From assembly GCA_021464245.1 (NCBI GenBank), contig JADCRB010000025.1, positions 1,708,193 through 1,772,192 on the forward strand: a DNA stretch of 64,000 nucleotides, in the 5' to 3' direction. The notes under the pieces were generated by a model. It saw only the letters and a list, made by a program, of their open reading frames with translations, did not search any database and was not told the DNA's origin. Origin of the DNA: Carallia brachiata. Taxonomy: Eukaryota; Streptophyta; Magnoliopsida; Malpighiales; Rhizophoraceae. Below are positions 33,101 to 64,000 of this stretch, in pieces; the first letter of the stretch is position 1, and the number at the start of each line of letters is the position of its first letter. A program made the translations under genes and the position numbers.

Positions 33101-36100
33101 TGCAGCAATGCTTGCCATTTTTCGGGGAGACTAAAGTGTAGGCATATTTGACTTTGTGGTGAAAAATTTCAACTAAGCCTCATTCCATGCACATATCTAT
33201 GCATTTACACAGTGTGTGCTTAGACACATACGTTATGAAACCACCACAAAGCATACTTGGGGCTGTTGTGGCTAGAGTAAAACGAACCAACCTGAGATGG
33301 TGTCAAGACAGGAACACGAACAGCTAGTGCCCACCGAAGTTCACGGATGTCACGCAATCTCTTCCACTCTGCCATCCCAGGGGCCCAGCACTTTGTTGTC
33401 CAGTTAATAGCTTTTTTGGAGCAGAACCTTCTGACAGCATCCTTCTCTACTGGTCCAACTTGGGCACCATCCTTATCAATGAACATCCATTCTTTTAGTG
33501 GCTCCATGAAAGCAGTAGCAGCTAACAAATTGGATTGTAAAGGGATAGCAGTCCTTTCTGAAGCTTCGTGGACCACCGTCAGCATATCAACAGCCAATAC
33601 ACAACCTCCAACCCGGACACAATCTTCGACATTGGATAAAACCTTCATTAGCACCTGCACAAAAGGTAAACCATAGACAATCAACTGCTTCCTATAATAA
33701 CAAGACAGCTAGAAATCCAGATCAGTTTTGGATATGTTATTGAAACATTCACCCCTATTACTGGCTCATTCATTGGTTTGAATATTGTTTACATAAAAAC
33801 AGCAGATTGAAGTGGCTGCCTACTGTAGACATTATGCCGCAATGACAACCATCACCAAAGGGATTTTCAACTAGTAATTTCCCTCTAAATGCAGATAGTT
33901 ACAAACACAATCTTCACAAAATTTACGTGAACTGAAGGTCAACAACTTGGATTGGTTTTTGGCAAAAGCGACACAGAAGCTTTTGATTTAAAGTAAAGTT
34001 GACATAAAAATTTCACCCAGAAAAATGGATTAGACAAGTAGTGAAGGTGAAAAATCCATGAAAGCGAGAGTATATAAACGAAAAAAGGAGATGATATAAA
34101 AAGCTGAGGAAACAATGGAAAAAGAGGTAATTCATGCTGGAAATGAAAATGAGCACAAGTGCGGCACCTGTGATTCATCAAGTTTAACATGTTATCACCT
34201 TAAAGTATTAACGATAAGACAAACCAGAAAATGTCATCTATCTGAACTCAATTGAAAGTCTCAAAATAAATACAAAAATTTTAAATAAAAAAAAAAATGT
34301 AAAACCGTAATCCCTATGAACCCTTTTAAACCAGAAAATGTACCTTCAAGAGAAGGAGAAGACGGTGCCTTAAAGCTCTATCATCTGTCCTATCTAGAAG
34401 AACTGTAATGTGTGCAGTACCATCAAAATGACTAATTGTGTTGTAATGCTGTTCATACACAATGGCCATTGCCCTTGCACACAGCTCCCTGACTGAAGAA
34501 CCTCCCCCTCCTCCAAAACCATCCAATCGTCCCATATCACACCAATCATCAGATGCACCCAATTCATCTGGAACAGTCCCATCCACAGTAAGTCCTGTGT
34601 CTGCATCACATAAGAACCGATGATAGAGTGCCCTAAAAAAAGCAACTGGATCCCGAAGTGGAAAATCCTGTGCCCTACCAGTGCTGCCACTATCAAGCAG
34701 CAAACGCAAATAATATTGGCCTACACAGACTTCTTTGGACAAGCTAGGGTAGCTCACAAAAAACTCAGAATAGTTCCATGATATCTGTGGCACACTATCA
34801 TTTTCTGTAGTCATATCTACCATAGCACCCCCTGGACCAATATCTTCAGTGCGTGCCTTCTCAACATCAAGTTTATTAACCTCAGCCTGCAAAGCTTCCC
34901 TCAATTCTTGCCGCATGCGTTCGTTCCAGATTAAATCAGCACGATTATGGTCAAGACTGAAAGCCCGCCAAAACTCATGCCAATTACAAAGTAGCCGACC
35001 AGAACCCACAGGTGTATTTTCAACTACCACTTGTGCAGGAGCTGGATGGCCAGTGCTCTGCAAATCAGCCACATGGGCATCTATGTTAACTGAATTTAGA
35101 GAATTTTGCTCTGACCCCTCGTGTACCGCAGTCGAAAGCATATCAATTGAAGCAACTAACGGAGAATGATCATTTTGTGGAGACCCTATTGATGGAACAT
35201 CACCATTGAAATTTCCAACAGCTCGGGCACCAGATGATTGTCCAGAATTTGGATCTAGTGCAGATCTCTGATAGTTGTCTGATCCTTTTAAAGCACTAAC
35301 GCTTGTCTCCTTCACGGGATCACCCATGTCATAATTGTTAGTTGAAGGCAATGAATGCTCTTGAGGTGTTATTCCCCTCCCCACACGTCCTTTCCTTAGC
35401 TGAAGCAAACGTCTTTGTCTTCTACTCATCAATGATCCTTCTTGATTCACATCTTCAAGCTGATGGTCATCAGAACGTGTATGCAAGTAGGCAACAAGCC
35501 CTGGGGGCAGGACCCTGGACAGTAGGTCCAGAGCTGGTTGATAAGAATCTGCCCAAAGAGCAACAAGTTGTCGACTAACCTCACGTCGCTCACCAGGAGG
35601 AAGGAAAAATGCATGCAATAAATGCCTCAGTAGAGCACCATCCCGCAATGCAGCATCACGCATGGACTCTGCTGCAATTGCATCTTCTTCTGCAATGGTA
35701 CGCATAATTACAGCAACTGTTTCCCTTACGCTTTCAGCCGGATGACCAAACAATGCAAATAAGCGACGCCGCAAACCAGCTACTTGTCGTAACAATTCAA
35801 CAAAGACAATGTATTGGGTAGTCTCACCATGTGGTTCGCATATCATAGCCTCAAGAACTTCAACAATAGCCATTGACAGTAAAGGTGATACGGACATAGG
35901 TCTCAGCCTATTAACAAGAATAATGGCATAACCATTATGAGCAAACAAAACAGACTTTGTGTGAATTATTGTAGCATGTTGTTCTCCTTTCGAGTCCGCT
36001 AGTAGACTTGGACTTCCCGGACCACCACCAATAAGGGCTGCAACAAGCCCAGCAGCTTCAGCAGCTACACACTCGGATCCATTTCTCAGCAAACCCATTA

Positions 36101-38572
36101 TTCTTCCAACGGCAGCAGGAAAAGACATGACATGAGAAGCTGCACTTCTTGATGCCAATAATCTACGTAAACAAGCGATGAATCCCATGACCGTTGCAGC
36201 TGCTTTAGGAGAAGGGGGAGGCAAAGGGGGAGACTCTGGAGGAAGATTTGGAGTAGATGGAAGCATTGTAATCAAGGCCATCAATGTTACCTCAGGCACC
36301 TCAATGTTAGGGGGAACTCCACCATACGGAACACATGCATTGAACTCCCTTATTCTACGCCACAATTTGGCTTTTGAACCAGGGACAGAACCACCTTCAG
36401 CAACAGCATCTTTAGCAGCCGACGCTAAATGCTTCAAGTGCATGGATGCATTTTCCATTTCAGCAAACGGGCGTTGTGGGCCTAGAAGTAAATGAACTCT
36501 GCCACATGGTGGGTCAATACGGTGACCCGGCATCGTTATCCTTGGTAGTACAGGTACTGGACATTGACCCTACATTCATATATCACTAATGTAGTGAGAA
36601 GACAATAAACCTGCGCATGAATGTACACCATTAATGAACTTATTGATTCACCAAAACATGACCATCGCCATCATACATCTGATGACTTAGAGCACCATGA
36701 CTCAATCTACTTTAATGTATAGAAAACTAACTTTATCCAACAGGGAACAGCTATACCTACTTCTGTTTGCAGCAAATCCCAAACTGCCGCGAGTAAGCTA
36801 TCCCGTGAAGTGCTTGAGTATATCTACATTCACGCCAAACATAAGATACTGCATACAAAAAGATATCAGAATTCAAAACAGCAGCAAAGAATACTCACAT
36901 GGATGGGACAACCATCATTGAACTCAATAGCAAACATTTGTGGCTCCTCTGCAAATCGAACAAGTGAGCTAACTGCGGATAAAGGACGTACAATAATGGC
37001 CTGCGCGCATCTAATGGATACGATTTAGCAAAACAGAAACCCACACATATGTCAAAATGCATGCACTATATCAAACCTATATTGTGTAAATTTTCATCAA
37101 CTTACTTCATAGTTTTGTGGCCTCCTTTCAACAAGTGAAACCTTGGTTAAAATCAATTGACATGGGATAGCATCACCATGCTCTCCAAGTCCACCTTTCG
37201 GGCCAATTTCCAAGGTCAATCCAGGAACATTTAGAGTTCCATGAGCAGCAGAACGCAACTTCATAACAGACCAACGCCCATAAGGGGTTTCTGGAGCTCC
37301 AACTGCCTCCTTTGCTAAATTTAAAATCAAATAGTAGATAAGTTGCTTAACCAAAAAGAACAGTCATGTGATGAAGAAAACTATTCAAAGTGAAATACCT
37401 CTTCTCTTTATGTACTCTGCCACAGTCAGGGACTGGGAACTGTCCACGGACAGTGATACCCCCACCATGGACTTGGCAGTTTTTGTCTGCAAAAGCATGC
37501 TCCGTGACATTATACAACAATTGAAGCAACTAATACGTGTCACCGCCGCAAAATGGTGCAAAAAAGAATATATCATAGTCTAAACACCAGAACAGCAAAT
37601 ACAAGTCCTACGACAACAAGCAATAATAAAAATTGAATTGAAAGGTGCCATCCATACCAAATTTGAGATAATTGCAGCATTTGTGGTCCCAGAAGCAGCT
37701 TGAAAAGCTTTAGATTTTCTTCCATATAAAGGACATAGAACAAAACCTCCATGATCGCTGCTTTGCCTTCCATTAGCATCAGAAAGAAAAACAATTGTTG
37801 GGGAATCCATATCTCTAAAATCCAAGCACCAGCGAAGATCACCCGATTTTAAGTCAATGAGTTCGACTCCAACATAAGTGACTTTTAATTTCTGCACAAA
37901 TATCAACTTTGTTGAGTAGACACTTTAATTGAAGGCAAATTTAGAGCTGCAATGCAATCCCCAATTTACAGACTGTGAACTCATTACAACCAACATTATG
38001 TAACTGTGAACAACATACACACACACATACACATAAAAGCACACAGAAACAAAAGCTAAAGATGATCACCAAACAAGAGACAGCTGATGGCCATGATGAA
38101 AATGAAAAACGCAAGATCCAACACTTACAAATGGGACCCACTCGCCATTTCGCCTCCGCAGATGCAGCACAGGGAACTCCGCCACGGCGCCGAGCCTATT
38201 CCATCGAATTCTATGCAACACAGTCAATATACTGGCTCTGTACTTGGAAGAGAACTTCATGGCCTTGAATTTGCCTTTGCCTTCGGTCCTCACACTCAAA
38301 TTAAACTCGAAGGAATTATCGTCGCGCCCGATGATCGGAGAGGCACCCTCAAAATCGCTGGCCACGTCGTAGGAATTCGTGACGGAGAGGGTGTTAGGGT
38401 CGAGAGTGACGATCGAAGCGTTGGACAGACAGAGAAGACGCTTGTACCGGCCGCGCCACGAGTGTTTTACAACGAGGTAGCGGGCAAGGTACTCCGGCTC
38501 CTCTTGGAGAGGGGCGGCGGCGGCGGCGGCGGCGGTCGGCGGGGCAGAAATGGAACTGGAGGGCGGTTCCAT
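21117..38572 (-). CDS. GRV2: GRV2/KATAMARI2, plant RME-8 (DnaJ-domain endocytic protein), 22 exons
   Basis: Exons in coding order: 38129-38572, 37658-37891, 37399-37486, 37106-37314, 36899-37000, 36761-36823, 34344-36569, 33292-33654, 31400-31540, 29748-30140, 29124-29621, 27648-27871, 27199-27543, 25929-26223, 24821-25279, 24398-24743, 23976-24319, 23423-23887, 23123-23247, 22171-22294, 21560-21628, 21117-21320. Exon phases agree throughout and sum to about 2586 codons (Arabidopsis GRV2 is about 2550). An N-terminal RME-8 region is followed by a GYF_2-like segment ([20 protein letters not shown], about residue 1175) and a J domain with the HPD motif in [13 protein letters not shown] (about 1535-1587, exon 11). 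Armadillo-like helical sequence fills the rest. The protein acts on late endosomes in vacuolar sorting and gravitropism. Exon 11 carries two breaks: two bases lost near 29400-29406 (WREEL of the family) and one near 29278-29282. Their sum is three, but the segment between is out of frame and meets a stop at once. Confidence 0.96.
23304..23390. repeat. CT/CA microsatellite in a GRV2 intron
   Basis: Alternating CTCTCT and CACACA tracts, lying in the intron between exons 18 and 19. Confidence 0.85.
31864..31882. repeat. Poly(C) tract of 19 bases in a GRV2 intron
   Basis: An uninterrupted run of C inside the intron between exons 8 and 9, in otherwise AT-rich sequence. Homopolymers of this length are unreliable in assemblies. 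Confidence 0.85.
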
Positions 38573-38845
38573 GGTGGGAGGACGAGGAGGCTGAAGGCGG
38601 TGATCCTCTGGGTGCCGGCTCACGGATTGTTGATGTTGCTGTTCAAAATAGTAGAGAGTGTGAGAGAGAGGGACATTGTTAGGGCGGAGAAAGAACCAAA
38701 GTCCCACGCCGGCTTCGGGGTGAGACCGTGACTGCTTAGCCCCCAGTTTCGGCCGTATTTACGGGTTCAGCCCACTCGGTTTTGATCGCTCACCCAGCCC
38801 CCTACCACCACTAAACCAAATCGAACTCTCATATAAATTAATCAA

Positions 38846-44932: not shown

Positions 44933-46240
44933 TCAGACCTTGACTTTGCCAGCAAGCATAAAAGCCTTGTAGGTGATGGATCTAACCAGTTGAGGCCCGC
45001 CCCAAGCATGCTCCAACTCCTCAACCATCTTCTGAGGTAGCAAATCCACACCCTGGTCTTTGGCTGTGGTGACTGCTGACCATGACCTCAACATCTTCAA
45101 AAATCCTTGAAAAGACAGCTTCTTTGGTATGTCCAACTCTAGTGGTTGTCCTTCAGAACCCAATCCCACATTTGCAAACGGAAACGGAAGTTTCCTATAT
45201 CCATCAAACAAGTAAAGGATGTTGGGGTTCCAGAAAGGGAGAGTTGTGTCGTGGAACCTCTTCATTATGGGATCAAATGTGGGGCTAACGACGACATCAT
45301 TGTAGCACCAGACAGCAAGCACACCACCAGGCTTTCGAAGCAAGCGTGTAACAAGGGAATAGAATTTTGGGAGGTCGAACCAATGCACTGCTTGGGCCAC
45401 CGTGATCAAATCAACTGAATTCTCACCTCCGATCAAACTCATCACTTCATCATCGGATGTAGAAGGCTGGGTGTGGATGTATCGAATCCGGGGATGCGCC
45501 ATTGCACGACTTAATTGTTCTTCACTCACGTCAGTTCCAATCACTTGCTCATAATGCTCAGCAACCTTGCAAAAAGAGGGAAAAAAAAAAAGGGCATCTG
45601 CACATTTGAGGCCAGTGTGAACAGTTACAGTACACAGCAGCACGAGGAGCTGCCCCGAGTTTATAATATTGTGCTTGACAGACACACAAGGTAAGTCATC
45701 TGAATCTAAAACACGGAAGTCTGTTCTCTGAAACCCAAATGCATTTGATACGCAATTATTTCAGAAGTCCAATTCAGCTTTGCCCCTTTTGCTCCTACAT
45801 GTTCAATTTATTCTAACAAACTAGGAGAGGACCATATCAGATCAAAACTGTCATAATGGAATAGAAACTTCGACCAGATGGGCGAATAAAAATGGTGAAG
45901 AAATTCAACAGGGAACTGATGATCAGGTCCTTATTCAGCTTTTTTGTTCAAAAAATAAAAGCAAAGAAAAAAGAAAATACAGAAATACCCGGACACAAAA
46001 GCAAGAACCAGCATAAACAAAAGAATCATATGGCTTTGTGGGATCAAAAAAAGTCAAACGAAGAGGAGGAAAAAAAATATAAATACTAACACCAAGAGCG
46101 GCTTGGCCATTGCCGGTGCCAACATCCCAAGCCAAAGAGTGATGAGGGGTGAGAGCAGCCAGCATTGAATACCATTTGGTTGGATAGTTTGGCCTTGCAT
46201 CCACGTACAGATCGGCTTGTTTATCAAACAGTCCTGCCAT
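44933..46240 (-). CDS. SAM-dependent class I methyltransferase (Methyltransf_11-like), two exons
   Basis: Exon 1 is 46091-46240 (50 codons) and exon 2 is 44933-45565, giving 260 residues with an intact frame and a GT-AG intron. The start MAGLFDKQADLYVDARPNYP matches the start of the plant family annotated as putative methyltransferase DDB_G0268948-like. Motif I of the SAM pocket is WDVGTGNGQAAL (about residues 38-49). GTDVSEEQL is the acidic loop after strand 2, and DLITVAQAVHWFD (about 110-122) is the motif II/post-II region. The C-terminal LRSWSAVTTAKDQGVDLLPQ is also typical. The family is cytosolic or nuclear with substrate unknown, so no specific reaction is claimed. It is the only host gene besides the 158-residue membrane protein whose frame is unbroken here. 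Confidence 0.93.
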
Positions 46241-54637: not shown

Positions 54638-55513
54638 GACAAGAGTTGGAAATAAAGATTAAAAAAAACAGTGGCAATAAAGTTTGTAACGGGGGCAAAA
54701 TATGAATTCGCAAGGGCTAAGGGCAGGATGTTCTTTTTTTTTTTGACAGAGATGTTCTTTTTGGGTCCAACTTAATCTTTTGGCTGCTATGATTTTAGAA
54801 CTCATATTGCTAACTTTAATGCACATGTCATGATGCTTTAGATTAAGACTATATGTAAAGCGTAAATTTCGAGTCTAAAACAATTAAACTCGAAAATACA
54901 AAAATAAATTACAAATAAAAATTGTAAAAGAAAAGAAAATTTACGTGGGGTCGATCTCCGTAGATCCTCCGATTAGTGTTCCTTTTTTGACTCCGTCAAG
55001 AGCTGCACGAGCTTGATCCTGACAGAAATAATTTCCACTGCTTTTTCTTGAACTGGGTAGACTAAAACCGGATCTAATTTGGACGTTTTGACTACGGTTA
55101 AGAACCGTAGAGACCAGATCTGAGCCGATCTGACTTAATTTCACCGAGGGTCGAAGGGACTTGTTCACGGATGAGCTGCCTGGATTTTGCTGAGGGCCGT
55201 ATGAGGCTTAATCCCAGCCGGATTTGTAGTAATTTGATATTTTTAATTCTATTTTCTCAGAAATTCAGATCTAGAGCGATCCAAAGAATATAAATTTAAA
55301 AATAACTTTAGAAATGGAAACAGCAAATTTTTTGGGCCTTACCCCTGAAATATCTCTCAAAACGGAGTTAGGAGAGTATACTGCTAAGTAAAAGCACGTA
55401 AGAAAAGGAGAAATTTTCTTGAGAGATTTTCAAAATTTTCTTTTTCTCTCAAATTCTCTGAATTTTTCTGTTTACAGATTTGCTGAATGTCCCTTTGAAC
55501 TGAGGCTGGAGGG

Positions 55514-55523
55514 CCTTTTTATA
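55514..55523 (-). promoter_or_regulatory. LTR TATA box in the loop of a perfect hairpin
   Basis: TATAAAAAGG on the minus strand. The arms CTGGAGGGCC (55506-55515) and GGCCCTCCAG (55524-55533) are perfect complements, leaving the eight bases of the TATA core as the loop. Confidence 0.65.
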
Positions 55524-55545
55524 GGCCCTCCAGAGAGGACCTTAC

Positions 55546-55576
55546 GCCACCAATCTTGAAATTCAAGATTGGTGGC
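55546..55576. repeat. Perfect 31-bp palindrome in the LTR
   Basis: Arms of 15 bases (55546-55560 and 55562-55576), beginning GCCACCAATC and ending GATTGGTGGC, around a single central A. It lies 23 bp upstream (in LTR sense) of the TATA stem, as a protein-binding site or transcript hairpin might. Confidence 0.85.
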
Positions 55577-55640
55577 TGCCAATTTTTATTTTTTATTATT
55601 ATTATTTTTTTTTAATTTGAAAAGGATGTTTACACAAATG

Positions 55641-55654
55641 CCCCCACTTCAAGG
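55641..55654 (-). other. Polypurine tract of the Tat-lineage element
   Basis: On the minus strand the purine-rich stretch around GAAGTGGGGG immediately precedes the LTR start, the place where plus-strand DNA synthesis is primed. Confidence 0.55.
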
Positions 55655-56299: not shown

Positions 56300-56474
56300 T
56301 TTCTTTTGAGAAAGAAGAGCTGAGGGGTGATATTACAACTCGGCATGCGGATATACAAATATAAAGAGTTTTTTTTTTTTTTTGAAAAGTCAAAAAAGGT
56401 GCAGAATCGGTAGGGCCATCCACGTCCCTTTCCTGCATAAGAGACAAAAGAGGCAGCGGCTGACGCGTGTCACG

Positions 56475-56566
56475 AAAGTCGTTACCGTGTGGCAGAAGTC
56501 GTTGCCGTGTGTGCTGCAGAAGTCGTTGCTGTGCTGCAGAATTCGTTGCAGAAGTCGTTGCACCTT
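56475..56566. repeat. Short tandem array, unit like GCAGAAGTCGTTGC
   Basis: Five imperfect units of the GAAGTCGTTGC core occur with spacings of about 15-24 bases, immediately downstream (in element sense) of the WOX-like sequence. Confidence 0.75.
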
Positions 56567-56609
56567 ATCTTGTCGGCCGTCCTAGCGGGGCCCGAGGTGC
56601 AACTCCAAG

Positions 56610-57203
56610 TCAAGCTCGACCTCGTCTGGTGGGCCGATGATGTGTGACGTCGACGTCGACGTCGCTTTCCAGCTGGTTGATGCTGTCGGAATATTCTGGA
56701 AAGAGAGGCAAAGTTTCGCCGGAATGACTCCTTTCTGCTAGAAAAATTCCTCCTAGACTTAAGTATCTAGGAGGGATGAACCCTTGGCTGACTCCGTAAG
56801 ACCACCAGGACCAGCATGCATGCTCCCATGGGCTACGGCTTTGATGAACATACCGTGGAGAGACCATTGCAGTGGAAGAACTCGGACCTGCTTCATTTGA
56901 GGGCGAAGTTGTACGGTGGGATCTACATCGGAACAGCAGACTGTTCTTTGGAAAAATCAGCTCTCAGTGCTGGTTTCTTCCTGCTTCTCCGATTCTGGAA
57001 CCAATAAAACACATTTTTTCCTTCGATTGCCCCGATGGGCGCAATCGTGAGACAAGTTGGTAAATCTGAGATGCATTAGGCATAATACCTCCATTGTTGT
57101 GGAAGACTTCCTCCAAAATTTGCAGTTGTGCCATGGTCGGTTGCCACCTTGTGCGGGGTGACCTTTCTTCTCCCTTGTCTTGAGGTTCTGCAACTGGTTC
57201 CAT
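56610..57203 (-). pseudogene. WUSCHEL-related homeobox (WOX) like sequence inside the retrotransposon
   Basis: From an ATG at 57203 the frame reads MEPVAEPQDKGEE and enters a homeodomain: RTRWQPTMAQLQILEEVF (helix 1), then NGGIMPNASQIYQL (helix 2). One base appears missing near 57034. In the frame after it, helix 3 reads AIEGKNVFYWFQNRRSRKK, the WOX-specific DNA-recognition helix. The extended loop and the residue pattern are of the WOX type, not of HD-Zip or KNOX. A second frame change near 56935-56950 leads to a C-terminal part holding HSGETLPLFPEYSD (WUS-box TLPLFP at 56697-56717, the repression motif of the WUS clade). WOX factors are nuclear regulators of stem-cell niches. The sequence has the orientation of pol and lies between integrase and the 3' LTR. 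It is broken as assembled. Which WOX clade donated it is not clear. Confidence 0.78.
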
Positions 57204-57320
57204 CTTTCTTGTGGCAGAGGAGCAAATCTGGTGTGTGGTGAAGATCGGTTGAGACTGATGCTGAGTTTCAGACTCAAACCCTCCGTGCTTTTATATTTTT
57301 GGGCCGTTCACAGTTTATAC

Positions 57321-57580
57321 TCATGCGGGCCAGGAGTTGGATTGGATTTTGAACTTGGGTTCTGGACTGTGTTGGAACTTGGAATTTTTGGGTTTTGGGC
57401 TTTGGATTGATTTGGGTTGTTTGGATTTGGTTTTTGGTCGAGTGTTTGGGTTTGGACTTTTGGATTTGGGTTGAGTTTTGGGTTTTGGACTTGGTTTTGT
57501 GTTTTGAATTGGGCTCAAGTGTTTGGGTTTGGATTTTTGGGTTTGGATTTTCGCTTGGACTTTCAGATCGGGACTTCGAA
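57321..57580. repeat. Low-complexity GGGTTTGG-like tract between integrase and the WOX-like sequence
   Basis: A degenerate array of G2-3T2-5 words (TTTGGGTTTGG and variants) on the plus strand. In the element's sense it is CCAAAACCC-rich and would translate as Pro/Lys/Ser-rich repeats such as PKPKTQPKSKSPNP. It is followed by T runs (57581-57626). I take it as expanded simple sequence, perhaps a spacer or the cargo's upstream region. Confidence 0.6.
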
Positions 57581-57918
57581 TTTTTTTTTTTTTTTTTTTT
57601 TGATTTTTTTTTTTGATTTTTTTTTAAACATATTTACACATAATACTGTTTCAGAAATTTACCATTGATTGGGCCGATTCGGACGCCTTCTTGGTCTGAC
57701 AGCATGTAAGCGTTGTGAGTGTAGGCCTCCTGCACTAGTATGGCCCGTCCCATTTGGAAGTAAGCTTGTCACCAGGCCGATGCTTCATGTTGATGGGCCG
57801 TCGCACTGCAAGAACAAGGTCTCCAACTTGAAAAGATCGAGGGCGGACCCTGCGGTTGAACGTGTTGGTGAGCCGGGCTTGGTAGCACTCAAGTTGCTGT
57901 TGTGCTTCGAGCCTCCTT

Positions 57919-58717
57919 TCATCGGGCTTCTAACTCATCCAGACGTAGGCGAGCATTCTCCTCCTGTGTGAGTCCTTCCAGAACAGCCATGCGCAGGGAT
58001 GGAATCTGTGTTTCCAACGGCAGTATTGCTTCGACACCGTAGACAAGTGAGTATGGCGTCGCCTGTGTTGGAGTCCGGTAAGTTGTACGATACGCCCATA
58101 ATGCCTCCGGAATTCTGTCATGCCAATCTCTTTTGGATTTAGAGACTACCTTCCGCAACAGGTTGCATAAGGTCTTGTTGAATGCTTCGGCCAAGCCATT
58201 TGCGGGGCATTGTACATGGATGACTTGTACTGCTTGAACTTGAACTTCTCGCAGAGCTTGTCGATTAAGCTGTTGTAGAACTGCTTACCATTATCAGTGA
58301 TGATGAATCGAGGGACTCCATAGCGATAGATCAGCTGAGTCCGGATGAAATTGGCAACATGCTCCTTCTTTACCTCTCTAAGTGGAATGGCTTCAGCCCA
58401 TTTTGAGAAGTAGTCGGTTGCTGCGAGGATGTACAGGTGACCCAGGGATGACTTTGGCAAGGGCCCCACTAAGTCGAGACCCCAAGCTTCAAAGGGCCAG
58501 GATGAGACAGTTGGATGCAGTGGCTCCGGTGGTTGATGTATGTAATTCGCATGAAATTGACAAGCTTGACAAGTTTTAGCAAACTCAATTGAATCACGTA
58601 CCATGGTTGGCCAGTAGTATCCCATCCTTCTGAGTTGGAAGTGCAACTTAGGCCCCGATTGATGTCCGCCACAAACACCAGAATGTGCTTCAGTGAGAGC
58701 CTGTTTTGCCTCTTCAT
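57919..58717 (-). pseudogene. Integrase of the Tat-lineage element, frameshifted
   Basis: The zinc-binding end is seen as KTCQACQ. The DDE core follows: FEAWGLDLVGPL (first D), IITDNGKQF (second D), then a frame change near 58195-58210, after which AEAFNKTL holds the catalytic E. The tail reads ALWAYRTTYRTPTQATPYSL, standard for plant gypsy integrases. Integrase inserts the cDNA into the genome. The frameshift disables this copy as read. Confidence 0.85.
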
Positions 58718-58928
58718 TGGCTAGGCAGCGAAGTAAACTCCATCAAAAGACCTTCGATACAGAGCATCCTTGAGATATATGAAGCGGGGAGCTCGTCGTT
58801 GAATTTCTGTTTTATGACGACGATCTTCGGGCAGCTTCCCGTGCTGTAGATAGTCAATGATTGGTTGGCGCCAATCTTCGTCCTCCGCGAGACGTATAGA
58901 TACAGCGTTGGCTGCTGTAGTTTCTTCA

Positions 58929-59555
58929 TCATGGCACTATCCATTTCTGACATACGACAACAACTGTAGCCTGGATTTCTGACTTTGCAAGAGAAGTGGC
59001 CAGGTTAGCCAACGCGTCTGCCTGAGTGTTTTCTCGTCGAGGCACATGCTCCAAGGTGATGCTTTCAAATTCATCCATTAGCTGTCGAGCACGTTGATGG
59101 TAAGGCGCAAGGTCCTCTTTCTTCACGTCATACAATCCTGTAAGTTGGTTGATGACGAGCTGGGAATCTCCATGGACTTCTATAGTTGGAATCTTCATAT
59201 CGACAGCCATTTGAAGACCAATGATCAAAGCCTGGTATTCAGCAACATTATTTGAACATAACTCACCGAGAATGATAGCATATGGTAGTATTTGTCGTTG
59301 AGGAGTGACAAACACTATGCCGGCACCAGCACCATCACGCCTTGCTGCACCATCAAAGAACATCGTCCATGGTGGCAGTGTCTCAATGTAAAAGACCTCT
59401 TCATCTGGAAGATCATCTGTGAACTCCCAATCTGACGGAATAGGGTGATCTGCAAGGAAGTCTGCTAGAGCTTGTCCTTTGACTGCTTTTTGAGGCACGT
59501 AGACAATGTCGTAGCTTTGTAGGATTACTGCCCACTTGGCAAGTCGTCCTGACAA
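58929..59555 (-). pseudogene. Second (archaeal-type) RNase H domain, Tat hallmark
   Basis: FFDGAARRDGAGAGIVFVTP (first Asp), NNVAEYQALIIGLQMA (Glu), VHGDSQLVINQL (Asp) and RRENTQADALANLA (last Asp) give the complete catalytic set in the order of RVT_3-type RNase H. It lies between the normal RNase H and integrase, the arrangement described for Tat/Ogre elements. The frame is open across the domain. Confidence 0.87.
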
Positions 59556-59911
59556 GATTGGTCTGATAAGATATATTTGACAGGATCAGCTCTGGCAATG
59601 AGACGTACCGTGTGAGCTTGCATGTAGTGCCTCAGCTTGTCAATGGCAAAGAACAGTGCTAGACATGTCTTTTCAATGGGCGAATAACTCAGCTCCGGAC
59701 CGTTTAGTGTTCTGCTCAAGTAGTACAGGGCAACTTCCTTTCCCTGCTCATTTTCCTGTGCAAGCAAGGCTCCCAAAGATCTTTCCTGCGCTGCAATGTA
59801 GAGAATCAACGACTTTCCTTGAATTGGAGCACCTAAGACCGGTGGATTGGAAAGAACTTCTTTATGCCTCAAAGGCTTTGCTGCAAGCTTCGTCCCACTC
59901 GAAGTTGACAT
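59525..59911 (-). pseudogene. RNase H domain adjoining the reverse transcriptase
   Basis: Typical gypsy words are seen: LILYIAAQERSLGALLAQEN, ALYYLSRTLNGPELSYSPIE and KTCLALFFAIDKLRHYMQAH. It overlaps the end of the RT frame by a frame change near 59862-59911 and is followed by the second RNase H. Confidence 0.85.
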
Positions 59912-60560
59912 CCTTCTTCATCAACCGATGGAAAGGTTGACATCTCCCAGCTAAATTGGAGATGAAACGGCGAATGTAGGCCAGCTTTCCTTGTAGACTT
60001 CGCAGCTCGTGCAGGTTTTTAGGTTCAGGCATCTTTTGAATTGCCTCAACCTTTGACTGATCAACTTCGATTCCACGATGGCGCACCACGAACCCAAGAA
60101 ACTTTCCTGATGTGACACCGAATGCGCACTTGAGAGGGTTCATTTTGAGCTGATGCCTCCGAAGTCTTTCGAACACTGTCTTGAGATCCTCGAGGTGGTC
60201 TTTGCGCTTCTTAGTCTTTACAACTAAGTCATCAACATAACATTCTACAATCTTGTGCAGCATGTCATCAAAAATTTTTTGCATAGCACGTTGATAAGTG
60301 GCGCCAGCATTTTTCAATCCAAACGGCATAACTTTGTAGCAGTATATACCTTTTGGGGTGCGGAATGCTGTCAACTCCTCGTCTTCTGGTGCCATTCTGA
60401 TTTGGTTATAGCCTGAAGAACCATCCATGAAAGACAATGCTTCGTGACCCGTTGTTGCATCGACTGTGATCTCCGTTATGGGCAAGGAAAGTCATCTTTC
60501 GGGCAGGCCTTGTTAAGATCTCGAAAATCAACACATACCCTCAACTGTCCATTCTTCTTT
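59862..60560 (-). pseudogene. Reverse transcriptase core, Ty3/gypsy
   Basis: FMDGSSGYNQIRMAPEDEEL, TAFRTPKGIYCYKVMPFGLK and the catalytic ECYVDDLVVKT are clear, followed by LKMNPLKCAFGV and GKFLGFVV. The upstream part of the domain (VCVDFRDLNKACPKDDFP) lies in another frame beyond a one-base change near 60486. RT copies the element RNA into cDNA. Confidence 0.92.
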
Positions 60561-61448: not shown

Positions 61449-62090
61449 TCAATACAATAAGAGAAAGGGGGTTGACCTTCTGAGCGTCGTGACTTGGCAC
61501 ATAGCGTAGGACTGGAGTGGAGCTTGAAGATGCAACATCCTTCGGACGAAGTTCAGCAGGCTGTGGCAGCTTTTCATTTGTTGGAGCCTGGGGTTGGGCA
61601 TTGGCAGGTTCTTCGACAGCTTTTCCCTTTTTGTGGATGCCCCCAGTCCAAGTAGCTTTTGATGGAATGATCTCCGGATTGTCTGTGTCGGTGTAGAAGA
61701 CTGCATCCCCAAATGTGATTCAGCATCATCGAACGGCTTTAAGTCAGCATTGACCTTTTGAACGCCACCATTGTAGTACTTGAAGCACTGATGCAGGCTT
61801 GAGAGCACAACTCCATTTCCATGAATCCACGGTCGTCCTAGCAACATCTTATATGTGGTACGTGCATCAATCACGTGAAATAGAGTGCTAGAAGTGAGAT
61901 TACCGATAGTTAGCTCCAAGCGAATCATCCCAATTGCTTTCTGTCCTCCTTGATTAAAGCCATGAATCATCAAGCGGCTGTCTGATAATTCATCAATGCC
62001 GATGCCGAGCTCCTTTATGGTGGATTTTGGGATAATATTGACTGCTGAGCCATCGTCGATCAGAATACGTCGAACCTTCTGTTCTTTCAC
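61449..62090 (-). pseudogene. Aspartic protease of the Tat-lineage element
   Basis: RRILIDDGSAVNIIPKSTI carries the catalytic Asp in the DDGSA form usual for this lineage, and YKMLLGRPWIHGNGVV is the second conserved box. The part after about 61740 loses similarity. It would cleave the polyprotein. Confidence 0.87.
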
Positions 62091-62825
62091 ATAGCCTGAT
62101 ACGTACAGTGGCCGATTGTGGGGTTTGGACCCAAGCAGGAGATCCTCATCTGAAAATGAGATAGCAGAGTAACATTCGACGTGATTTTGGGCCGTCTGTT
62201 GCTCCGCTGAGTTAGAATCATTTGATGACAGAGGTTCAGCTGAGGTCTGGAGAGTATTGCCGACTTGATTTTGCCATACTTCTGTTGTTGCAAAGCTATA
62301 AACAGCTGAGGGTTAGCGAGAAGGGTTTGGAGAGCTTCATATACCTTCTCCGTTGTCGACTTTTTGTTGTCGAGCGGCTCCTCCTTAGGTGTGTCACCTC
62401 TTCTGATGGTTTTGAAGTGATGGTGGTCTGGTTTGCAGTTATGCCTTCCTGGTCCAGAATGATTTTATTCTGGCTTTTGAGCTTCATGATTAGCTCCTTC
62501 AGGACGAAACACTTCTCGGTTGGATGACTTACTATCCGGTGATATTTGCAGAATCTCGGATCGCTGACTCGATCCTTTTCATTCGGCCGCTTGCACTCTG
62601 GGAGTTCGATCAGCTTCGCCTCCAGTTGGTCAAGATGTCGGGACGTCTGAGTCGGGGAATGGATACTGCTTCTGCTCCAACTCTCGCAATGTCACCTTCC
62701 GCCTTTCCTGTTGTTTTGGCTGAGTTATTTGGGTCGGAGGATTTACCTTAGCTTTGGCGCCCACTTTTACTGGTGCGGCTTCAACAGTCATCACTTCTTT
62801 TCCTTTTCCGGAGCTGTTGGGTTTC
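62091..62825 (-). pseudogene. Gag C-terminal region, frame-disrupted
   Basis: A stretch near 62470-62560 reads across frames as CKYHR, then HPTEKCFVLKELIMKLKSQ. This is the zinc-coordinating C/H segment that Tat elements have at the end of gag. The surrounding frames are interrupted. Confidence 0.6.
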
Positions 62826-63974
62826 TTAATCTCCCTTCTGCCCCCTTGCTGGTCCAACTGGATGGGAACCGTGCCTCCAAGAAGTCTGGATGCTTATCTC
62901 CATATCATGTGCGCGGGTCGCCAGTTCTTCGAAAGTTCGGGGTTTGACACCCTGCAGGATGTATAACAGCTCCCAATGCATTCCCTGGATGCACATCTCC
63001 ACGGCAGAAGTCTCCGTCAGGCGATCTTTGCAGTCCAAGCTGAGGGCACGCCATCTGTTGATGTATTCGACAACGGGCTCTCCTTTCCTTTGTTTGGTGC
63101 TGGTAAGCTCCATCATACTTACCGTCCTTCGAGTGCTGAAAAATCTGTTGAGGAACTCTCGTTGTAGCTGTTCCCAACTGTCGATCGATTCTGGTTCAAG
63201 ATTTATGAACCAGGTGAAAGCGGTCTCCCTGAGTGAACGAACAAACTGCTTCACCAAGAGATCTCCATAAGTCCCTGCGTTGTTGCAGGTTTCAACGAAG
63301 TGGGCGATGTGCTGTTTGGGATCGCCTCGTCCGTCGAATTGTTGAAATTTGGGCGGCTGGTAGCCCAAGGGCATGTTGAGACTTTCGATCCGTCTGGTGT
63401 ACGGTTTGACGTACATCTGTGATCCTTGGAAGGATGTAGCTTGTTGCAGTCGGATCGTATTGGCTATCATTTCCTGCAATTGTTGAACAGATAGCGAAGC
63501 TACAGAATTTGAGGGTGGCAGCTGTGTAGAACTACCTGGTCGCTTTTCTGCACTGAAGACGTCGGCTGGTGTGGCTTCTGGAGTGAAACCGGGTGGATAT
63601 GGTTGCTCCTCGCGGATCTCGGGATCAACTTGGATCGGGGCCTTTCCTTTGAGAGCGGCGATCTGTTGATCTTTTTCCTCCACGACTCTGATCAGCTGCA
63701 AAATTTTGTTCTCCAATTCTGAAATTCTTTCCTCTGTGCTGGTTGTGTTGGTCATCATGACGGCAACAGATGAGGCTCCGGGAAAGACTGGGGGAGAAAA
63801 CTCTTCTGATTCTTCTGTGTGAGTCGGATTTTGTTGAGCAGGCTTCGTCGTGTTGCCCCCGACTTCGATCGGGGTGGGTGATCGACTCCTCCATGCGGCA
63901 AGAGAGTCAGGGGAGAGTCCTGTTGTGCAGCTGTGGACTCTCCATTTCGATATTTTGTCGGGTTTGGACGGCAA
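62826..63974 (-). CDS. Gag of the Tat-lineage element (open frame of 382 residues)
   Basis: The Retrotrans_gag domain is clear: LGYQPPKFQQFDGRGDPKQH, FVRSLRETAFTWFINLEPES, WEQLQREFLNRFF and KGEPVVEYINRWR. Before it lies a coiled-coil-like stretch (TEERISELENKILQLIRVVE). The open frame begins at 63974, but a likelier start is one of the paired Met codons at 63755-63758, just before that stretch. Gag forms the virus-like particle. The frame is closed at 62826, with the zinc-finger part in another frame. Confidence 0.85.
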   Translation of the reverse strand: MPSKPDKISKWRVHSCTTGLSPDSLAAWRSRSPTPIEVGGNTTKPAQQNPTHTEESEEFSPPVFPGASSVAVMMTNTTSTEERISELENKILQLIRVVEEKDQQIAALKGKAPIQVDPEIREEQPYPPGFTPEATPADVFSAEKRPGSSTQLPPSNSVASLSVQQLQEMIANTIRLQQATSFQGSQMYVKPYTRRIESLNMPLGYQPPKFQQFDGRGDPKQHIAHFVETCNNAGTYGDLLVKQFVRSLRETAFTWFINLEPESIDSWEQLQREFLNRFFSTRRTVSMMELTSTKQRKGEPVVEYINRWRALSLDCKDRLTETSAVEMCIQGMHWELLYILQGVKPRTFEELATRAHDMEISIQTSWRHGSHPVGPARGQKGD

Positions 63975-64000
63975 GAAATTGTGTCCGTCCCCGGGTTTCT
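63975..64000 (-). other. Edge of window, upstream of gag
   Basis: Presumed leader of the element; the 5' LTR and primer binding site are outside the window. Confidence 0.5.

What the first reader, a model, noticed from the sequence alone, without database searches (positions are those of the whole stretch)
56610..57203. A Tat-lineage retrotransposon carrying a WOX homeobox-like gene with a WUS-box
Between integrase and the 3' LTR, on the pol strand, are a WOX-type homeodomain (RTRWQPT..., then NVFYWFQNRR) and, downstream, the WUS-box TLPLFP. Two independent family motifs in the right order make chance unlikely. Extra ORFs are known in the 3' region of Tat elements, but I know of no homeodomain factor carried there. 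If the cargo is shared by many copies, the element may have spread a stem-cell regulator or used it for its own expression in meristems.
Basis: partly seen in the sequence, partly recalled or inferred. Interest (0 to 1): 0.88.

Follow-up and report, generated by a model that had tools for sequence, protein, structure and literature searches.

The report
Jumping gene carrying a WUSCHEL-like regulator
A plant retrotransposon family carries, at the same place in many copies, a gene for a WUSCHEL-type stem-cell transcription factor that is often still intact and looks protected by selection, so a mobile element appears to have made a plant stem-cell regulator part of its own gene set.

Summary
The window holds most of a 10.2-kb Tat-lineage Ty3/gypsy element (3' LTR 54854-55634; 5' LTR just outside; TSD CTATA). 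The window copy is frameshifted. A genome search scored 40 places: the window's own copy and 39 others at 96-98% identity. Of the 40, 36 have integrase upstream and LTR downstream and 17, all among the 39, keep one 205-209-aa frame with all three motifs. Intact copies score 47 bits for PF00046; one gives E=2.6e-18 to WUSCHEL. Homeodomain dN/dS over 28 element-borne copies is 0.15 (bootstrap 0.05-0.52). Copies with an intact gene have younger LTR pairs (8 vs 8, p=0.0035). Nine host WOX loci found are 42-50% identical to the cargo, with no element integrase beside them. The best reading is one old capture kept as a third gene. I found no report of it. What the protein does for the element is inferred.

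The parts
54854..55634 (-). 3' LTR (781 bp, TG...CA). The 5' LTR lies outside the window, at window-equivalent 64289-65099.
   Evidence: L041 289-1099 matches at 93% over 814 aligned columns; 20 substitutions over 778 sites, K2P 0.026; 5-bp TSD CTATA on both outer sides. LTR TATA box at 55523.
55635..55650 (-). Polypurine tract GAAGTGGGGGCATTTG next to the 3' LTR
   Evidence: Read by eye from the sequence.
56582..57203 (-). Cargo gene: WUS-type WOX transcription factor (ATG 57203, stop 56584-56582); frameshifted in this copy, 205-209 codons in intact copies
   Evidence: 17 of 40 copies intact.
56970..57155 (-). Homeodomain (TRWQPT...NVFYWFQNRRSRKK), split over two frames in this copy; limits approximate
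   Evidence: intact copies 47.0-47.6 bits for PF00046.
56697..56714 (-). WUS-box TLPLFP
   Evidence: 4 of 20000 shuffles reach TLxLFP.
56594..56614 (-). EAR-like LDLELHL at the C-terminus (a further frame in this copy)
   Evidence: in one frame with the rest in 17 of 40 copies; PF07897 at 10.4 and 9.7 bits in 2 of 3 copies tested, below its cutoff 28.9.
57288..57295 (-). TATA box TATAAAAG about 85 bp upstream of the cargo ATG, a candidate promoter of its own
   Evidence: 1 observed, 0.03 expected per shuffled 3' internal region; motif chosen after seeing it. Inference only; no transcript data.
57634..58742 (-). Integrase (zinc-binding and core domains; C-terminal part to a stop at 57634), frames broken in this copy
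   Evidence: PF00665, PF17921; end read from the translation.
58932..59585 (-). Second RNase H (aRH type), between RH and integrase: hallmark of Tat elements
   Evidence: RVT_3 1.9e-25; lineage rule from PMC6317226 passages.
59528..60491 (-). Reverse transcriptase and first RNase H
   Evidence: RVT_1 3.8e-31, RT_RNaseH 2.1e-19.
61455..62312 (-). Aspartic protease region
   Evidence: PF13975 E=5e-4 and PF13650 E=5.5e-4, both below their cutoffs (weak).
62832..63998 (-). gag
   Evidence: Retrotrans_gag 9e-15.

Best explanation
A Tat-lineage element once captured a host WOX gene of the modern, WUS-box clade (most likely WUS itself, as a spliced transcript joined by template switching: inferred) between pol and the 3' LTR, and has since kept it as a third, protein-coding gene. 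Shown: same position in many copies, intact frames in 17 of 40, dN/dS below 1 most clearly in the homeodomain, intact genes in younger insertions. Inferred: the protein is made from an internal TATA promoter and/or the LTR, enters the nucleus, binds WUS-like sites, and through WUS-box and EAR recruits TOPLESS-type co-repressors. The most likely benefit is acting on host genes in the shoot stem-cell lineage, the cells that give rise to the germ line, either keeping cells in a permissive, proliferating state or damping host silencing there, so that new insertions are inherited.
For: 39 places besides the window's own among 40 scored match at 96-98%; 36 of 40 flanked by integrase and LTR. Of the 20 best places of a WUS query that were fetched, 11 of 11 element-type loci have the element's integrase beside them, 0 of 9 host WOX loci do. 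17 of 40 have homeodomain, WUS-box and EAR in one frame. dN/dS over the 17: 0.40 (0.20-0.85); homeodomain over 28 copies 0.148 (0.05-0.52). The window's homeodomain keeps 23 of 25 positions invariant in 22 modern WOX, while only 20 of its 37 other positions hold a residue seen in them. Copies with the intact gene have younger LTR pairs (8 vs 8, p=0.0035); one has no substitution over 383 LTR sites. WUS-type extra residue in the homeodomain loop. Seven element-borne homeodomains form one clade, 99/100.
Against: No expression or binding data. Known WUS motifs are not enriched in the LTR or upstream of the ATG, against simple self-activation. The subfamily is not resolved: the tree puts the long branch next to a WOX2, and cargo+WUS is merely not rejected (p-AU 0.141). 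The window copy is broken, and 23 of 40 lack the complete frame. For 12 equal-length genes the true frame gives 0.42 (0.21-0.91) and shifted frames 0.63 and 1.57, so the whole-gene contrast is modest; the homeodomain value over the 17 alone is 0.16 with a bootstrap range up to 0.93. With a reduced reference of 9 WOX rows the cargo keeps 23 of 27 invariant positions. The 40 copies are the best-scoring ones, so the intact share is no estimate for the family. An integrase control for dN/dS failed. Whether elements without the cargo exist could not be counted.
Confidence: 0.8

Rival explanations
1. Passenger: a host WOX gene was captured once and simply amplified in a recent burst, with no use for the element; copies look alike because the burst is young.
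For: The 39 other scored copies are only 2-4% diverged from the window copy, and 23 of 40 lack the complete frame with all three motifs. Whole-gene dN/dS is only moderately below 1.
Against: Homeodomain dN/dS 0.148 over 28 copies and 0.40 over the whole gene; long stem branch (2.7 changes per column) with 23 of 25 core positions kept; frames open in recently inserted copies. The stem divergence could still have built up in a lost host gene before capture.
Confidence: 0.12
2. Ordinary host WOX pseudogene nested by chance inside one element.
For: The window copy is frameshifted.
Against: 36 of 40 copies, on many contigs, carry it at the same place; the nine host WOX loci found are only 42-50% identical to it.
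Confidence: 0.01
3. The gene is mainly an RNA-level decoy that triggers or absorbs small RNAs against host WUS.
For: Captured gene pieces can act as siRNA sources in maize (passage in PMC13317346).
Against: Protein identity to the two host WUS-like loci is only 46-50%, too far for small-RNA pairing by general knowledge; protein-level constraint is not expected of a decoy.
Confidence: 0.03
4. The protein acts on the element itself: it binds the LTR and raises or times its transcription in meristems.
For: Regulatory roles have been suggested for proteins encoded in this region of Retand elements (PMC11963269 passages).
Against: TAAT, TTAATSS, TCACGTGA and TGAA-type sites are not enriched in the LTR over 1000 shuffles (TGAA in the 145-bp U3 piece was reached in 41 of 1000, not significant among 18 tests). 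The motifs are recalled, and the diverged homeodomain may prefer other sites.
Confidence: 0.25

Closest known systems
Extra ORFs (eORF/aORF) of Tat-lineage elements: Ogre with plant mobile domain, Retand with Transposase_28
   Same: [quoted passage not shown] Retand TRP28 is also predicted to bind DNA (PMC6317226 and PMC11963269, passages).
   Different: Cargo here is a recognisable host transcription factor with three motifs of one plant family, on the sense strand; TRP28 ORFs are antisense. No PMD or TRP28 in the 10 ORFs tested in this region.
Orchid (Phalaenopsis) Ty3/gypsy elements with an AlkB-type m6A demethylase
   Same: Host-type functional domain kept as an extra ORF in a gypsy element with two RNase H domains (PMC9289625, passages and section 12).
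   Different: An RNA-modifying enzyme, not a developmental transcription factor.
Citrus LTR elements with YgdH (LONELY GUY) and Aegilops tauschii elements with a B3 domain
   Same: Gypsy-type elements with domains of plant development genes (PMC9289625, section 12).
   Different: Different genes; no homeodomain is named in that section.
WUSCHEL / modern-clade WOX proteins
   Same: WUS-length homeodomain, WUS-box TLPLFP, EAR-like C-terminus.
   Different: About 50% identical in the homeodomain, about 207 aa, carried by an element.
Maize Grande accessory gene with its own promoter
   Same: [quoted passage not shown] paper itself not opened).
   Different: Antisense to gag-pol (PMC7264820); no homeodomain mentioned in what I saw.

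Membership tests
Ty3/gypsy Tat lineage | Second RNase H (aRH) in pol | tested here: met
   RVT_3 at 58932-59585 besides RT_RNaseH at 59528-59917.
Ty3/gypsy Tat lineage | LTRs, TSD, PPT of a complete element | tested here: met
   LTR pair, 5-bp TSD CTATA; PPT read by eye.
Ogre/Retand group of Tat | aRH between RH and integrase | tested here: met
   Order RT-RH-aRH-IN; rule from PMC6317226 passages. No RT tree was made.
Retand | Antisense TRP28 ORF and a pol-3'LTR region of 2.9-6.6 kb | tested here: not met
   About 2.0 kb (57634 to 55634); no Pfam hit in 10 ORFs tested there, 7 of them on the antisense strand. Ranges from PMC11963269, for recently active elements.
Ogre | Plant mobile domain (57% of Ogre), tRNA-Arg primer site | tested here: inconclusive
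   No PMD in the ORFs tested; the stretch next to the 5' LTR was read (TGGCACGCTCGG...) but not matched to a tRNA.
WOX family | WOX-type homeodomain | tested here: met
   PF00046 47 bits, WUSCHEL E=2.6e-18.
WOX modern (WUS) clade | WUS-box TLxLFP after the homeodomain | tested here: met
WUS subfamily | One-residue-longer homeodomain loop and C-terminal EAR (that EAR is limited to few WOX members is recalled) | tested here: met
   Extra residue shared with the WUS and Ipomoea WOX7-like rows and one WOX2; LxLxLxL in 17 of 40 copies; PF07897 below cutoff.
WUS subfamily | Groups with WUS in a tree | tested here: inconclusive
   ML puts the long branch next to a WOX2; a WUS+cargo clade is not rejected, p-AU 0.141 (few columns, bootstrap not settled).

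The most novel reading that the evidence does not exclude
A retrotransposon family has turned a captured WUSCHEL-type regulator into one of its own working genes and uses it to change the fate or gene expression of plant stem cells, the founders of the germ line, so that its copies are inherited: a mobile element that encodes its own stem-cell factor.
Probability: 0.4. Interest if true: 0.95.

Novelty: new variant of a known kind. Interest (0 to 1): 0.88.

Why it matters
Extra genes in plant LTR elements mostly have no known function and no clear origin. Here the origin is recognisable and the protein family is among the best-studied in plant development, so the question of what an element gains from an extra gene can be tested with existing WUS assays. 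It may also mean that genome-wide WOX counts in such species are inflated by element-borne genes, and that a stem-cell regulator has been scattered over the genome, perhaps in more than a hundred places: 129 of 138 scored matches of a WUS query are of the diverged type, though I inspected only part of them.

Tried and rejected
Protein database searches gave WOX proteins at 31-52% identity, named as host WOX, WUSCHEL or hypothetical proteins where named; no near-identical relative in the length ranges searched. Viral contigs and genome contigs gave none, as expected for a plant gene. Self-regulation by WUS sites in the LTR: not supported. A poly-A-like run downstream of the gene (about 56369-56383) was considered as a trace of a separate processed retrogene; the gene's constant place in 36 of 40 copies makes that unnecessary, though it may be a trace of the captured mRNA. 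A positive control of dN/dS on an integrase fragment failed: only 2 ungapped copies. The last row (N-term) of the script crashed; the rows cited were printed before. EAR chance: LxLxLxL 2 of 20000 shuffles, but LxLxL before a stop occurs 10 times in six frames of the element part in the window, so the EAR rests on its position and on the 17 intact copies rather than on the count. Four of 20 copies gave no LTR pair and were dropped before the age count (L002, L006, L013, L026).

Literature: nine searches on the question and one on WOX motifs, in the PMC open-licence library only, listed no title or abstract that reports a homeodomain or WOX gene in a plant LTR element; most listed papers were not opened. 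PMC6982007, the one hit, treats WOX genes and Tat elements as separate topics (passages). Text finds for homeobox/homeo/WUS terms were negative in PMC7264820 (part 1 of 3 read; find), PMC6317226 (passages), PMC11963269 (abstract and passages), PMC12786077, PMC11728184 and PMC13317346; in PMC9289625 'homeo' was searched and not found and section 12 was read. Supplements could not be read; PMC6317226 counted only extra ORFs of 250 codons or more, so this one would be missed.

Full report
What is there. The window (G000:C85:1708193-1772192 of an unnamed 337.5-Mb assembly) contains a Ty3/gypsy element on the minus strand: gag, protease region, RT, RH, a second RNase H and integrase. The second RNase H between RH and integrase marks the Ogre/Retand group of Tat in angiosperms by the rule in PMC6317226 (passages). 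The protease match is below Pfam's cutoffs. The 3' LTR is 54854-55634; the 5' LTR lies 289-1099 bp beyond the window edge. The outer sides carry the 5-bp target duplication CTATA, and the LTRs differ by 20 of 778 sites, K2P 0.026. With recalled plant rates of 0.7-1.3e-8 per site and year this insertion is about 1-2 million years old.

The cargo in the window. Between the end of pol (57634) and the LTR lies a gene on the pol strand, from ATG 57203 to a stop at 56582. It has lost its frame inside the homeodomain and further on. The two homeodomain halves match WUSCHEL at 3.4e-8 and 3e-6. Six-frame scanning with a WOX HMM finds nothing else in 64 kb, and 20 shuffled windows reach at most 9.1 bits against 41.7 and 37.5. 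TLxLFP occurs once in the window and in 4 of 20000 shuffles. I also found an EAR-like LDLELHL just before the stop, in a further frame, and a TATAAAAG 85 bp before the ATG.

Other copies. A DNA search of the genome with window 56600-57260 scored 40 of 1230 first-look candidates. The 40 are the window's own copy (100%) and 39 others at 96-98%; 39 of 40 match the query from base 1 to 661, one from 1 to 660. In 36 of 40 the integrase end lies upstream and the LTR downstream. The four others are L006 (no LTR by that probe, though one search shows LTR pieces downstream), L021 and L037 (neither) and L039 (no integrase, LTR 75%). Taking the longest frame from an ATG near the expected start, 17 of 40 have homeodomain, WUS-box and EAR in one frame of 205-209 codons; 4 more have homeodomain and WUS-box, 9 the homeodomain only, and 10 (the window copy among them) none. 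So the EAR found out of frame in the window proved real in other copies. Natural intact proteins score 47.0-47.6 bits for PF00046 against a cutoff of 22.9 (3 of 3 tested), and the one tested against solved structures gives E=2.6e-18 to WUSCHEL.

A WUS protein (P0022) searched against the genome scored 138 of 1442 candidates. Nine loci with 59-81% identity are host WOX genes by their homeodomains (L062-L070). The other 129 lie at 33-51% identity. Of these I fetched the 11 best (L071-L081): 11 of 11 have the element's integrase beside them, 0 of the 9 host loci do. By their coordinates, about two dozen of the rest coincide with copies; the others I did not inspect. Counts are lower bounds, and more distant host WOX genes may be missing.

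Selection. Among the 17 intact genes dN/dS is 0.40 (codon bootstrap 0.20-0.85, 99.3% below 1); in the homeodomain 0.16 (up to 0.93, 98.1% below 1); the middle part 0.48 and the WUS-box-EAR part 0.43 do not differ significantly from 1 on their own. For 12 genes of equal length the true frame gives 0.42 (0.21-0.91), the shifted frames 0.63 and 1.57. Over 28 element-borne homeodomains (17 plus 11) it is 0.148 (0.05-0.52; 99.7% of bootstraps below 1). Bootstrapping codons does not remove relatedness of copies, and mutations after insertion push the value up. Independently, the window's homeodomain keeps 23 of 25 positions that are invariant in 22 modern WOX sequences (the two changes are Y to F and R to K), although only 20 of its 37 other positions hold a residue seen in any of them. 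The 22 modern rows, each left out in turn, keep all or all but one of the invariant positions and hold 31 or more familiar residues; four WOX11/12-type rows keep 18-19 of 25 and 21-22 of 37; with a reduced reference of 9 rows the cargo keeps 23 of 27 and 20 of 35. Neutral decay would have hit both classes of position alike. Part of this divergence could predate the capture.

Age and intactness. For 20 copies I fetched the expected place of the 5' LTR; 16 gave a comparable pair of 191-540 sites (not L002, L006, L013, L026). Eight with the intact gene have K2P 0-0.023, eight with a broken one 0.005-0.050; Mann-Whitney p=0.0035. One intact copy shows no LTR substitution over the 383 sites compared. 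The simplest reading is that the gene is intact when elements move and decays afterwards.

Origin. Seven element-borne homeodomains form one clade (99/100) on a long stem inside the modern WOX clade (66 columns, bootstrap not fully settled). The maximum-likelihood tree puts them next to a WOX2; holding them with WUS is not rejected (p-AU 0.141). The WUS-type extra residue in the loop, the TLPLFP form of the WUS-box and the EAR point to WUS. The nine host WOX loci are 42-50% identical to the cargo, so no recent donor is among them.

A second context. In L021, L037 and L039 the close match to the window's element begins at window 57337-57338, just before the cargo's TATA region, and runs to about 55600 at 90-95%. 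Their upstream flanks match each other at 86-89% and the window only weakly: L021 a gag-protease piece at 78%, L039 pieces of the pol end at 68-72%, L037 and L039 short remnants of the integrase end by protein. L037 has an LTR-end-like stretch (111 nt, 83%) 1.3-1.4 kb before the cargo, so it may be a derivative without gag-pol that keeps the cargo. This is a lead, not a result.

How it may work. The three motifs are those by which WUS binds DNA and recruits TOPLESS-type co-repressors (recalled). A repressor in shoot stem cells is the reading I prefer, because insertions there are inherited. The LTR and the stretch before the ATG show no enrichment of WUS sites (motifs recalled), so host targets are likelier than the element's own promoter, unless the diverged homeodomain reads other sites. 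None of this is shown.

Known or new. Extra ORFs in Tat elements are well known, and host-type domains (AlkB in orchids, YgdH/LOG in Citrus, B3 in Aegilops) have been described (PMC9289625 section 12). I found no report of a homeodomain or WOX gene in such an element (nine searches listed under Tried and rejected). PMC6317226 counted only extra ORFs of at least 250 codons, which would skip this one; supplementary tables were not readable. I therefore call it a new variant of a known kind.

Noticed in passing
L021, L037, L039: Three of 40 cargo copies sit in another element context: the close match to the window's element begins at window 57337-57338, just upstream of the cargo's TATA box, and their upstream flanks match each other at 86-89%. 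L037 shows an LTR-end-like stretch 1.3-1.4 kb before the cargo, possibly a gag-pol-less derivative that kept the gene.
   Followed up: partly
34329-36569 and 38069-38758 (minus): Exons matching the N-terminal part of DNAJ protein RME-8 (E=1.8e-59 and 1.2e-19), a host gene.
   Followed up: no
44936-45760 (minus): Open frame with a methyltransferase domain (PF08241, E=2.9e-6).
   Followed up: no
56476-56562: Short tandem repeats of about 20 and 12 bp shortly after the cargo's stop codon.
   Followed up: no
57300-57625: Low-complexity C/A-rich stretch with an A-rich tract on the sense strand between the end of pol and the cargo; the integrase-to-cargo distance measured varies from 387 to 625 bp among the 37 copies with integrase.
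   Followed up: no
L062 and L063: Two WUS-like host loci whose homeodomains group together (99/89).
   Followed up: no
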